Positions 4,809-12,612 of a DNA stretch of 33,974 bases are shown here, piece after piece. The notes below the pieces were generated by a model, which searched no databases, had not been told where the DNA came from, and was given only the letters and a program-made list of their open reading frames with translations. This DNA is from Mycobacterium sp. UM_CSW (lineage in GTDB: Bacteria > Actinomycetota > Actinomycetes > Mycobacteriales > Mycobacteriaceae). The stretch spans positions 1 to 33,974 of the forward strand of contig NZ_AUWQ01000024.1 of assembly GCF_000455205.1 (NCBI RefSeq), given 5' to 3'. The position numbers and the translations under genes are program-made. Position 1 is the stretch's first letter. The number at the start of each line of letters is the position of its first letter.

Positions 4809-4822
4809 TTACCCTGTAGTCA
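4809..4822. promoter_or_regulatory. Near-copy of TTACY-N4-AGTAA palindrome at the tetR promoter
   Basis: TTACCCTGTAGTCA lies 27 bases before the tetR ATG. It matches the perfect 14-bp palindromes at 9012 and 12597 at nine of ten defined positions. It overlaps a possible -10 element (TACCCT, 4810-4815), so a bound repressor would block transcription. The sequence match is direct; the role as an autoregulatory operator is inferred. Confidence 0.5.
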
Positions 4823-4848
4823 GATTGGCGGCTAGAGAGGCAACAACG

Positions 4849-5469
4849 ATGGCGGGTGGTACCAAGCGGTTACCGCGTGCTGTCCGCGAACAGCAGATGC
4901 TCGACGCCGCCGTGCAAATGTTCTCCGTCAACGGTTATCACGAGACGTCGATGGACGCGATCGCCGCCGAGGCGCAGATCTCCAAGCCGATGCTGTACCT
5001 GTACTACGGCTCCAAGGAGGACCTGTTCGGCGCCTGCCTGGACCGCGAGCTGGGGCGGTTCGTCGACGCGGTGCGCGCCGACATCAACTTCGCCCAGAGC
5101 CCAAAGGACCTGCTGCGCAACGCTATCGGGTCGTTCATGCGTTACATCGACGCCAACCGCGCGTCCTGGATCGTGATGTACACCCAGGCCATCAGCTCGC
5201 AGGCGTTCGCGCACACGGTGCGCGAGGGACGTGAGCAGATCATCGAATTGGTGGCCGAGCTGATGCGGGCGGGCAGCCGCACCCCACGCTCGGATGCCGA
5301 GTATCAGATGATGGCGGTGGCGCTGGTCGGCGGCGGCGAGGCGATGGCCAACCGGCTGTCCACCGGCGACATCGGCGTCGACGAGGCGGCCGAGCTGATG
5401 TTCGACCTGTTCTGGCACGGTCTGCGCGGCACGCCGGAGGATCGGGAAGCCGCCTCACAAGCCGGATAA
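4849..5469 (+). CDS. TetR-family transcriptional regulator (Rv0238-like)
   Basis: A 206-residue TetR repressor, very similar to Rv0238 over its first 100 residues. The helix-turn-helix lies at about residues 30-55 (HETSMDAIAAEAQISKPMLY then LYYGSKEDLF); the rest is the all-helical ligand-binding and dimer domain. The ATG at 4849 is chosen over an in-frame TTG at 4825, because GAGAGG lies 8 bases upstream and the protein then starts MAGGTKRLPR as in Rv0238. It follows lpqI by 55 bases. Its promoter region carries a near-copy of a palindrome also found at fabG4/fadA2 and fadE5, so I infer that it controls the neighbouring fatty acid genes and itself. The ligand is unknown; an acyl-CoA would fit. 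Confidence 0.92.
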   Translation: MAGGTKRLPRAVREQQMLDAAVQMFSVNGYHETSMDAIAAEAQISKPMLYLYYGSKEDLFGACLDRELGRFVDAVRADINFAQSPKDLLRNAIGSFMRYIDANRASWIVMYTQAISSQAFAHTVREGREQIIELVAELMRAGSRTPRSDAEYQMMAVALVGGGEAMANRLSTGDIGVDEAAELMFDLFWHGLRGTPEDREAASQAG

Positions 5470-5494
5470 GCCGGCTAGCCCCTACATTCGTGGG

Positions 5495-10681: not shown

Positions 10682-10709
10682 GTAATTCAGCTGGGCGTGC
10701 CCAGACGGC

Positions 10710-12545
10710 CTAGAACGCCGCCTCGTCGAGCTCCATGATGTCGTTGTCCAGCGTCTCGATGACCTCGCGGGTGCTGGCCAGCAGGGGCAGGAAGTTCTTC
10801 GCGAAGAACGATGCCACCGCGATCTTGCCCTCGTAGAAGGACCGCTCGGCGCCGCTGGCGCCGGCGTCCAGCGCCGCCACCGCGACCGCGGCCTGACGCT
10901 GCAGCAACCAGCCGATGACCAGGTCGCCGACGCTCATCAGGAAGCGCACCGAGCCCAGGCCCACCTTGTAGAGGCTGGTGACGTCCTCCTGCGCGGCCAT
11001 CAGGTAGCCGGTCAGGGTGGCCGCCATGGCCTGCACGTCGGTCAGCGCCTTGCCGAGCAGCTCGCGCTCGGTCTTGAGCCGGCCGTTGCCGGACTCGCTG
11101 TCGACGAACTTCTGGATCTCCCCGGACACGTGGGCCAGCGCCACACCCTTGTCGCGGACGATCTTGCGGAAGAAGAAGTCCTGCGCCTGGATGGCCGTGG
11201 TGCCCTCGTAGAGCGAGTCGATCTTGGCGTCACGGATGTACTGCTCGATCGGGTAGTCCTGCAGGAAGCCGGACCCACCGAAGGTCTGCAGGCTCTCGGT
11301 GAGCTTGGCGTACGCCTGCTCGGAGCCCACACCCTTGACCACCGGCAGCATCAGGTCGTTGACCTTCACCGCCAGCTCGGCGTCCACCCCGTGCAGCGCC
11401 TCGGCGACCGCCGCGTCCTGGTAGGTCGCGGTGAACAGGTACAGCGCGCGCAGACCCTCGGCGTAGGCCTTCTGGGTCATCAGCGAGCGGCGCACGTCCG
11501 GGTGGTGCGTGATGGTCACCCGCGGCGCGGTCTTGTCGGTCATCTGGGTCATGTCGGCGCCCTGCACGCGGGACTTGGCGTACTCGAGCGCGTTCAGGTA
11601 GCCGGTCGACAGGGTGGCGATCGCCTTGGTGCCGACCATCATGCGGGCCTGCTCGATGACCTCGAACATCTGCGCGATGCCGTTGTGCACCTCGCCGACC
11701 AGCCAGCCCTTGGCGGGCACGCCGTGCTGACCGAGCGAGAGCTCGCAGGTCGCGGAGACCTTGAGGCCCATCTTGTGCTCGACGTTGGTGACGAATACGC
11801 CGTTGCGCTCGCCCAGCTCGCCGGTCTCGAAGTCGAACAGGAACTTGGGCACGAAGAACAGTGACAGCCCCTTGGTGCCCGGGCCGGCGCCCTCGGGACG
11901 AGCCAGCACCAGGTGGAAGATGTTCTCGAACAGGTCACCGGAGTCGCCCGAGGTGATGAAGCGCTTCACACCGTCGATGTGCCAGGAGCCGTCCTCCTGC
12001 TGGACCGCCTTGGTGCGCCCGGCGCCCACGTCCGAACCGGCGTCCGGCTCGGTCAGCACCATGGTCGAACCCCAGCCGCGCTCGGCGGCCAGCACGGCCC
12101 ACTTCTTCTGCTCCTCGGTGCCGAGGTGGTACAGGATGTTGGCGAACCCGGCGCCGCCGCCGTACATCCACACGGCGGGGTTGGCGCCCAGGATGTGCTC
12201 ATGCAGCGCCCACAGCAGCGCCTTGGGCATCGGCATGCCGCCGAGCGCCTCGTCGATGCCGGCCTTGTCCCAGCCGGCCTCGGTGACGGCGCGGACGGAC
12301 TCCTTGAAGGATTCCGGCAGCGTCACCGAATGGGTCTCGGGGTCGAAGACCGGCGGGTTGCGGTCGCCCTCGACGAACGACTCCGCGACCGGTCCCTCGG
12401 CCAGACGGCTGATCTCGGACAGCATTTCCTGGGCGGTGTCGACGTCGAGGTCGCTGTACTCGCCTTGGCCTAATGCCTTGTCAACGCCGAAAACTTCGAA
12501 CAGGTTGAATACCTGGTCACGGACGTTGCTCTTGTAGTGGCTCAC
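10710..12545 (-). CDS. fadE5: FadE5, acyl-CoA dehydrogenase
   Basis: A 611-residue FAD-dependent acyl-CoA dehydrogenase of the long (FadE5) subfamily, which oxidises acyl-CoA to trans-2-enoyl-CoA, the first step of beta-oxidation. Visible features are TEPDAGSDVG (165-174, FAD/substrate loop), FITSGD near 196-201, and the catalytic base E447 in SLYEGTTAIQAQDF. The extra C-terminal helical domain typical of this subfamily is present. The start is GTG at 12545, with GAGGAGG about 7 bases upstream; the resulting MSHYKSNVRDQ and length equal Rv0244c. An upstream in-frame extension to 12572 would displace this site and is rejected. The promoter region has a palindrome shared with fabG4/fadA2. Confidence 0.96.
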   Translation of the reverse strand: MSHYKSNVRDQVFNLFEVFGVDKALGQGEYSDLDVDTAQEMLSEISRLAEGPVAESFVEGDRNPPVFDPETHSVTLPESFKESVRAVTEAGWDKAGIDEALGGMPMPKALLWALHEHILGANPAVWMYGGGAGFANILYHLGTEEQKKWAVLAAERGWGSTMVLTEPDAGSDVGAGRTKAVQQEDGSWHIDGVKRFITSGDSGDLFENIFHLVLARPEGAGPGTKGLSLFFVPKFLFDFETGELGERNGVFVTNVEHKMGLKVSATCELSLGQHGVPAKGWLVGEVHNGIAQMFEVIEQARMMVGTKAIATLSTGYLNALEYAKSRVQGADMTQMTDKTAPRVTITHHPDVRRSLMTQKAYAEGLRALYLFTATYQDAAVAEALHGVDAELAVKVNDLMLPVVKGVGSEQAYAKLTESLQTFGGSGFLQDYPIEQYIRDAKIDSLYEGTTAIQAQDFFFRKIVRDKGVALAHVSGEIQKFVDSESGNGRLKTERELLGKALTDVQAMAATLTGYLMAAQEDVTSLYKVGLGSVRFLMSVGDLVIGWLLQRQAAVAVAALDAGASGAERSFYEGKIAVASFFAKNFLPLLASTREVIETLDNDIMELDEAAF

Positions 12546-12594
12546 TACGTTCCTCCTCGTTGAGAATGCCACTTGTGGTTGGGTACTAGGTCTA

Positions 12595-12612
12595 AGTTAC
12601 CCACCAGTAACT
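12595..12612. promoter_or_regulatory. TTACC-N4-AGTAA palindrome in fadE5 promoter
   Basis: AGTTACCCACCAGTAACT is an 18-bp inverted repeat with six perfect base pairs per arm. Its inner 14 bases (12597-12610) match the palindrome at 9012-9025. On the fadE5 strand a possible -10 (TAGTAC, 12588-12583) follows after 8 bases. A second small repeat, ATAAC-C-GTTAT, lies further upstream at 12623-12633 and may bind something else. Confidence 0.7.

What the first reader, a model, noticed from the sequence alone, without database searches (positions are those of the whole stretch)
4809..12612. One palindrome links a TetR gene with fabG4-htdX, fadA2 and fadE5
TTACTTCAGAGTAA (9012-9025) and TTACCCACCAGTAA (12597-12610) are perfect palindromes of the form TTACY-N4-AGTAA. 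TTACCCTGTAGTCA (4809-4822) at the tetR promoter matches with a single mismatch. The copies at fadA2 and fadE5 each sit 8-10 bases upstream of a plausible -10 hexamer; the tetR copy overlaps a possible -10. A long chance palindrome at all three lipid promoters and at the closest regulator is unlikely. I infer that this TetR protein represses itself and a four-enzyme beta-oxidation set, with an acyl-CoA as the likely inducer. I know of no description of this circuit, but could not search.
Basis: partly seen in the sequence, partly recalled or inferred. Interest (0 to 1): 0.75.

Follow-up and report, generated by a model that had tools for sequence, protein, structure and literature searches.

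The report
Fatty-acid operators with two candidate sensors
A short palindrome beside this mycobacterium's fat-burning genes looks like a real and strongly conserved genetic switch site, probably read by two related fat-sensing proteins rather than by one.

Summary
The palindromes are real. TTACYNNNNRGTAA occurs 14 times in this genome against 1 for the reversed control, and 703 against 117 in 60 genus genomes. In mycobacterial loci fetched by name the fabG4/fadA2 site is exact in 68 of 68 and the fadE5 site identical in 53 of 53. Other sites precede fadE24-23-, etfBA-, desA3-, efpA-like genes and more. The neighbouring TetR (Rv0238 type) is tied to the motif: 26 of 28 orthologues in other genera of the family have it just upstream. 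So self-control and fabG4-htdX/fadA2 control are well supported. But fadE5 cannot depend on this TetR alone: its site is present in 58 of 58 genomes tested in the order, 38 of them without the TetR. The best other reader is FasR, a known acyl-CoA sensor found in 145 of 150 genomes, whose published 25-mer reads as two such dyads. Sites also differ at the centre: purine-pyrimidine (fadE5, etfBA, desA3) or pyrimidine-purine (tetR, fabG4/fadA2, fadE24, efpA). I propose two paralogous acyl-CoA sensors with shared arms. No binding was measured; the ligand is inferred.

The parts
4849..5469 (+). TetR-family regulator, 206 aa (Rv0238 type; name recalled)
   Evidence: PF00440 E 6e-17 and PF21943 E 9e-27; orthologue in 60 of 60 genus genomes and 111 of 121 family genomes
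4809..4822 (+). operator-like site of tetR, one mismatch, centre TG (pyrimidine-purine)
   Evidence: 26 bp before the ATG; within one mismatch in 33 of 80 named loci; exact or one mismatch in 26 of 28 other-genus loci
6736..7581 (-). htdX-like MaoC-domain dehydratase, second gene of the fabG4 unit
   Evidence: PF01575 E 3e-23; its start meets the fabG4 stop
7581..8960 (-). fabG4-like short-chain reductase
   Evidence: PF13561 E 1e-49
9012..9025 (.). divergent operator TTACTTCAGAGTAA between fabG4 (51 bp) and fadA2 (70 bp), centre CA (pyrimidine-purine)
   Evidence: exact in 68 of 68 (fabG4) and 67 of 67 (fadA2) named loci with upstream DNA
9096..10409 (+). fadA2-like thiolase
   Evidence: PF00108 E 4e-41, PF02803 E 6e-28
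10710..12545 (-). fadE5-like acyl-CoA dehydrogenase, 611 aa (an upstream start at 12572 is possible)
   Evidence: PF12806 E 1e-31, PF02770 E 4e-15; orthologues in 139 of 150 order genomes at E <= 1e-160
12597..12610 (.). fadE5 operator TTACCCACCAGTAA, centre AC (purine-pyrimidine), 51 bp before 12545
   Evidence: identical in 53 of 53 named loci; operator in 58 of 58 genomes tested in the order
28963..28976 (.). fourth exact match TTACTGAACGGTAA, touching the ATG of a 224-aa minus-strand ORF (28289-28963); membership in the regulon unknown

Best explanation
The palindromes are operators of a fatty-acid regulon served by two paralogous TetR-family proteins that share the TTAC/GTAA arms. Shown by sequence: the motif is conserved, occurs genome-wide at lipid promoters and lies upstream of this TetR's orthologues in other genera. 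Inferred: (1) the Rv0238-type TetR of the window represses itself and fabG4-htdX/fadA2 and, elsewhere in the genome, fadE24-23 and efpA, through sites with a pyrimidine-purine (YR) centre; (2) the fadE5 site, like those at etfBA, etfD, desA3 and fas, belongs to an older purine-pyrimidine (RY) class read by FasR (Rv3208 type), perhaps as an activator, with possible overlap between the two proteins; (3) acyl-CoA releases both, so that synthesis and beta-oxidation answer one signal.
For: Motif 14 v 1 control in the own genome; 703 v 117 in 60 genomes. Exact fabG4 site 68 of 68, fadE5 53 of 53. TetR self-sites 26 of 28 in other family genera v 0 of 30 for FasR genes of the family. A TANNNT overlaps the gene-side arm in 22 of 27 self-sites (opposite arm 13 of 27). 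fadE5 operator in 38 of 38 TetR-less and 20 of 20 TetR-bearing genomes, FasR in 145 of 150, and the published FasR 25-mer read as two RY-centred dyads with one mismatch each. Centre classes: fadE5 RY 42 of 45 and 23 of 25; TetR self-sites YR 18, RY 3 of 29; YR:RY 62:81 in 16 family genomes v 1:29 in 8 TetR-less genomes; by gene. TetR and FasR are separate clades with different recognition helices.
Against: No binding or expression data. Outside the family the TetR self-sites are mostly RY (8 of 12 dyads), so the class rule holds at best within the family. 49 of 62 YR sites could hold a -10-like TANNNT; the centre may mark promoter layout. Two FasR genes outside the family (G063, G070) have a CTAC variant upstream. 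Within Mycobacterium the tetR site is poorly kept (33 of 80 within one mismatch). Counts treat related genomes as independent. Another conserved TetR (group O) could read RY sites.
Confidence: 0.5

Rival explanations
1. One reader: the window's TetR binds all three window sites and most others; FasR or another factor reads the motif only in genomes without the TetR. The centre difference only marks whether a -10 hexamer lies inside the operator.
For: Self-sites in 26 of 28; shared arms at all sites; tetR, fabG4, fadA2 and fadE5 are neighbours in the window; motif density is higher with the TetR, 1.70 v 0.79 per Mb; 49 of 62 YR sites could contain TANNNT.
Against: fadE5 operator kept in 38 of 38 genomes without the TetR; gene-wise centre classes; CG centres, which hold no TANNNT, 13 in the family v 0 in TetR-less genomes (p = 0.048).
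Confidence: 0.25
2. FasR, or another order-wide TetR protein, reads nearly all sites, including that of tetR; the Rv0238-type TetR is a regulated gene, not the regulator.
For: FasR in 145 of 150 genomes; motif enriched even without the TetR, 0.79 v 0.21 per Mb; published FasR 25-mer carries the same kind of dyads.
Against: FasR genes of the family lack the motif (0 of 30) while the TetR has it; YR sites almost absent where the TetR is absent (1 of 39).
Confidence: 0.15
3. A third factor, not FasR, reads the RY sites, while the TetR reads the YR sites.
For: A second TetR group (O) was seen in the four genomes compared from three families (G000, G115, G060, G076); no FasR binding to fadE5 has been shown.
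Against: Only FasR has a published operator of this form among the papers seen.
Confidence: 0.08
4. The palindromes are chance or plain promoter elements.
For: The tetR copy overlaps a possible -10 and is degenerate in fast growers.
Against: Enrichment and conservation.
Confidence: 0.02

Closest known systems
FasR (Rv3208), TetR-type activator of fas-acpS that senses long-chain acyl-CoA (PMC7382501: passages and section 10; PMC7652896: passages)
   Same: TetR fold family, same kind of half-sites in its published 25-mer, acyl-CoA of C16 or longer releases it from DNA; matched by phmmer to the window TetR (6o6p E 3e-16, 6o6n E 2e-15; that these entries are FasR is recalled)
   Different: separate clade and recognition helix; single known target fas-acpS in the passages seen; the window TetR has a self-site, FasR genes of the family do not
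Bacillus FadR and Pseudomonas PsrA, acyl-CoA-released TetR repressors of beta-oxidation (recalled; 3whb)
   Same: proposed logic: repressor of beta-oxidation genes released by acyl-CoA; 3whb matches at E 4e-11
   Different: distant in sequence; their operators (recalled) differ; ligand of the window TetR untested
MadR (Rv0472c), acyl-CoA-responsive TetR (PMC8872791, passages)
   Same: acyl-CoA-responsive mycobacterial TetR with a small scattered lipid regulon
   Different: consensus TCTGTGxxxxxxxGT and targets desA1/desA2
KstR and KstR2, cholesterol regulators of TetR type (named in PMC4482099, passages)
   Same: TetR palindromes at lipid-catabolic genes; KstR chains match at E 5e-6
   Different: other motifs and genes (recalled; not tested here)

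Membership tests
TetR family | N-terminal TetR HTH domain | tested here: met
   PF00440 E 6e-17, above its cut-off
TetR family | dimer binding to a short palindromic operator | not testable with these tools
   palindromes present; no binding assay
FasR (Rv3208) orthologues | same clade as FasR | tested here: not met
   window TetR in clade T (23 rows, support 93/91), FasR in clade F (13 rows, 96/99); long branches warned of; the own genome has a separate FasR at C31:9041
FasR operator | adjacent RY-centred TAC..GTA dyads as in the crystallised 25-mer | tested here: inconclusive
   fadE5 has RY dyads, with a second copy within one mismatch in 32 of 38 and 18 of 20 order genomes, but mostly 22-27 bp apart, not 13 as in the 25-mer; in the window fadE5 has one dyad
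acyl-CoA-released repressors of beta-oxidation (FadR/PsrA type) | operators at beta-oxidation genes | tested here: met
acyl-CoA-released repressors of beta-oxidation (FadR/PsrA type) | own gene under the same operator | tested here: met
   26 of 28 other-genus loci; only 33 of 80 within Mycobacterium loci
acyl-CoA-released repressors of beta-oxidation (FadR/PsrA type) | acyl-CoA binding that releases DNA | not testable with these tools
   inferred from relatives; structure prediction unavailable
MadR | TCTGTGxxxxxxxGT consensus | tested here: not met
   the conserved element has a different sequence

The most novel reading that the evidence does not exclude
FasR, known as the activator of fatty-acid synthase, also holds an ancient operator at fadE5 and the ETF electron chain across the order. 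The Rv0238-type TetR is a paralogue whose recognition helix and operator centre changed together within the family, splitting one acyl-CoA regulon into a synthesis and electron-transfer arm and a repressed arm (fabG4-htdX/fadA2, fadE24-23, efpA). The second arm overlaps the long-known isoniazid response (efpA, fadE23, fadE24; recalled, efpA also in PMC3296574, passage), which acyl-CoA build-up would then explain.
Probability: 0.33. Interest if true: 0.8.

Novelty: new variant of a known kind. Interest (0 to 1): 0.6.

Why it matters
Mycobacteria live on lipids, yet the papers seen here describe no regulator shared by fadE5, etfBA and etfD. A conserved operator with two named candidate readers makes that question testable in laboratory species and would put fatty-acid synthesis and breakdown under one signal. 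It would also be a clear case of paralogous repressors that share operator arms and differ at the centre.

Tried and rejected
Rv0158: consensus YGGCGGBGMCGGCGG (PMC10501769, passages), no fit; the same passage reports fabG4, htdX and desA3 as lowered in its knockout.

Co-occurrence of TetR and motif over the order as sole proof: significant (p = 4e-16, not corrected for kinship), but genomes without the TetR are enriched too (0.79 v 0.21 per Mb), so it was not taken as proof.

The tetR copy as a conserved Mycobacterium operator: kept only in part. In fast growers a TACCCT close before the ATG looks like a -10 (my reading).

Structure prediction was asked for four times and never ran, so no fold search was made.

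Limits of counts. Site lists were typed; G037, G093 and G101 lack one site each; G084 was left out (11 of its 13 sites are: 6 GC, 1 each of AT, AC, CC, CG, GA); sites listed for G203, G245, G275 and G299 were not used. The 29 self-sites hold repeats, 5 one-mismatch CTAC forms and 4 from Mycobacterium or read off; the window's own one-mismatch site and L164 were not in that list. In some searches I asked for 60 regions and dropped 2 (L338, too short; L340, a placeholder): 38 of 91 TetR-less and 20 of 59 TetR-bearing genomes, chosen by me. The 22 loci are the new ones among the best 30, so they lean to nearer genera. TetR presence in the order set means best E <= 1e-33, my cut-off. In one search nine sites had no gene start nearby with my simple gene caller.
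Full report
OBSERVATION. The window is contig C24 of a 6.39 Mb genome in 186 contigs. Its TetR is 100% identical to one in Mycobacterium sp. E796. The fadE5 copy fails at its fifth pair, and a fourth exact match at 28963-28976 was missed.

MORE THAN CHANCE. TTACYNNNNRGTAA occurs 14 times in the own genome, the reversed control once. In 60 genus genomes the sums are 703 and 117, motif above control in 60 of 60. 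Of the 80 loci, those with upstream DNA have an exact site before fabG4 in 68 of 68, before fadA2 in 67 of 67 (the same divergent site) and before fadE5 in 53 of 53, there always TTACTGGTGGGTAA in gene direction. The reversed control reached one mismatch in 3 of 68 fabG4 loci and in none of the other sets. In the fabG4/fadA2 site the arms are fixed while inner bases vary. These loci are relatives, not independent trials.

THE REGULON. In the own genome sites lie before an acyl-CoA dehydrogenase (fadE24-like), an ETF beta subunit (etfBA), a fatty-acid desaturase (desA3-like), a gene that I read as the MFS transporter efpA (Pfam run on the G034 copy), an alpha/beta hydrolase and PE-family genes (Pfam run on one of the PE genes). 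In G034, a genome that I take for a fast grower, they also lie before malate synthase G, a second acyl-CoA dehydrogenase, an iron-sulphur protein that I read as EtfD, and a DUF4442 protein. One lies about 510 bp before the predicted start of an ORF that I read as FAS I; NCBIfam gave it no hit, and the reading is helped by a near copy of the FasR 25-mer upstream. FadE5, ETF and EtfD work in one measured electron path (PMC13083937, passages). In seven of eight sampled genomes (that of G002 was not fetched) the fadE5 orthologue has a site, 29-123 bp upstream in the six measured and 51 bp in the window.

WHO READS IT: THE TETR. In the same family but outside Mycobacterium, the motif lies within 100 bp upstream of the TetR orthologue in 26 of 28 loci: 20 exact, 6 with one mismatch. 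It is also upstream of orthologues in three families further out (f5, f12, f14), partly as CTAC variants; in f15 one of two loci has a one-mismatch form and the other none. In the family, FasR genes have it in 0 of 30; outside it, FasR genes of G063 and G070 have a CTAC...GTAA variant at -161 and -91. In 22 of 27 self-sites a TANNNT overlaps the gene-side arm, against 13 of 27 on the opposite arm; at fadE5 the numbers are 8 v 15 of 38 and 7 v 9 of 20. That suits repression at tetR and some other layout at fadE5. In the family 10 of 121 genomes lack the TetR at E <= 1e-28. Seven of them (g57, 2.2-2.9 Mb, probably Corynebacterium) also lack FasR at that level and show no enrichment, 9 motifs v 23 control. 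One (g59) has 2 v 3; two (g61), with FasR, have 4 v 0 and 6 v 1.

WHO READS IT: NOT THE TETR ALONE. In the order, 59 of 150 genomes have the TetR by my cut-off; motif density is 1.70 per Mb (control 0.18) with it and 0.79 (control 0.21) without it. I took the DNA upstream of fadE5 in 38 genomes without and 20 with the TetR. The operator is present in 38 of 38 (31 exact, 7 one mismatch) and exact in 20 of 20; the reversed control within one mismatch is in none of the 58. A second copy within one mismatch is present in 32 of 38 and 18 of 20, mostly 22-27 bp away. So this operator does not need the TetR. FasR is found in 145 of 150 genomes. Its crystallised 25-mer (PMC7382501, passage; section 10 tells of neighbouring dimers on one DNA) reads as two TACYNNNNRGTA-like dyads, each with one mismatch.

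TWO CLASSES. By the centre dinucleotide, exact fadE5 sites are purine-pyrimidine in 42 of 45 (TetR-less) and 23 of 25 (TetR-bearing, outside the genus), and in 53 of 53 mycobacterial loci. TetR self-sites in the family, 29 typed: YR 18, YY 6, RR 2, RY 3. fabG4 sites: YR 59, RR 5, YY 3, RY 1 of 68. By gene: fadE24-23 5 YR, 1 YY; efpA 2 YR; fadA2/fabG4 3 YR, 1 YY; etfBA 4 RY; desA3 3 RY; fadE5 8 RY; etfD 5 RY, 2 RR, 1 YY; DUF4442 1 RY, 1 RR. Genome-wide YR:RY is 62:81 (196 sites, 16 family genomes), 5:35 (55 sites, 5 TetR-bearing genomes outside the family) and 1:29 (39 sites, 8 TetR-less genomes); first v last p = 7e-6, sites counted as independent. The recognition helix is SKPMLYLYYGSK in the 16 family TetRs compared, SKPM[VI]Y[LTA]YLG in 7 outside it, SKPVLYQHF in 13 FasR. 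By this rule the window's fabG4/fadA2 and tetR sites are of the TetR class and the fadE5 site of the FasR class.

AGAINST THE CLASS RULE. TetR self-sites outside the family are mostly RY (8 of 12 dyads). 49 of 62 YR sites could hold a -10-like TANNNT, so the centre may mark promoter layout; CG centres, which cannot, give weak support, 13 v 0 against GC 28 v 10, p = 0.048. Within Mycobacterium the tetR site is within one mismatch in 33 of 80 loci (6 exact, 27 one; control 0), two mismatches in 20, none in 27. The clades carry long-branch warnings.

LIGAND. By sequence the nearest solved chains are 3f1b (E 8e-66), 6o6p and 6o6n (3e-16, 2e-15; FasR by recall) and 3whb, a fatty acid metabolism regulator (4e-11). 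FasR is released by acyl-CoA of C16 or longer (PMC7382501, passage). An acyl-CoA inducer is inferred.

LITERATURE. In ten searches of the held open library I saw no listed paper that ties Rv0238 or FasR to control of fadE5 or etf genes; lists were capped and subscription papers are not held. Rv0238 and Rv0243 both occur in a proteome paper (PMC4928086, listing only). Rv0238 appears in passing in a P450 review, which calls it a regulator of efflux pumps (PMC6469627, passage), and in a resistance preprint (PMC12687858, passages). The main texts of two M. tuberculosis network papers do not name it (PMC4301838, PMC4249609, term searches); supplements were not read. In the TetR survey PMC4482099 it occurs once, in no passage shown. 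For isoniazid, efpA is among the two most changed resistance genes in PMC3296574 (passage); induction of fadE23/24 is recalled.

VERDICT.

Noticed in passing
window 28963-28976: A fourth exact match, TTACTGAACGGTAA, touches the ATG of a 224-aa ORF (28289-28963, minus) beside a carboxyltransferase-domain ORF; the same 14 bases occur once in G267.
   Followed up: partly
L003, L004, L006, L199 (contigs C11 and C104 of the own genome): Five exact sites lie before four PE-family-like genes, two of them 16 bp apart; G034 has sites before genes that I read as secreted proteins.
   Followed up: partly
window 10644-10681: A 19-nt inverted repeat, 95% complementary, lies between the convergent ends of fadA2 and fadE5; a terminator is possible.
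   Followed up: no
L333-L392: The fadE5 operator across the order is usually a pair of dyads 22-27 bp apart, about two helix turns; only one dyad is seen in the window.
   Followed up: partly
L267 (G060): In a genome without the TetR a site lies between two divergent ORFs, one with an end that I read as a DNA-binding regulator.
   Followed up: no
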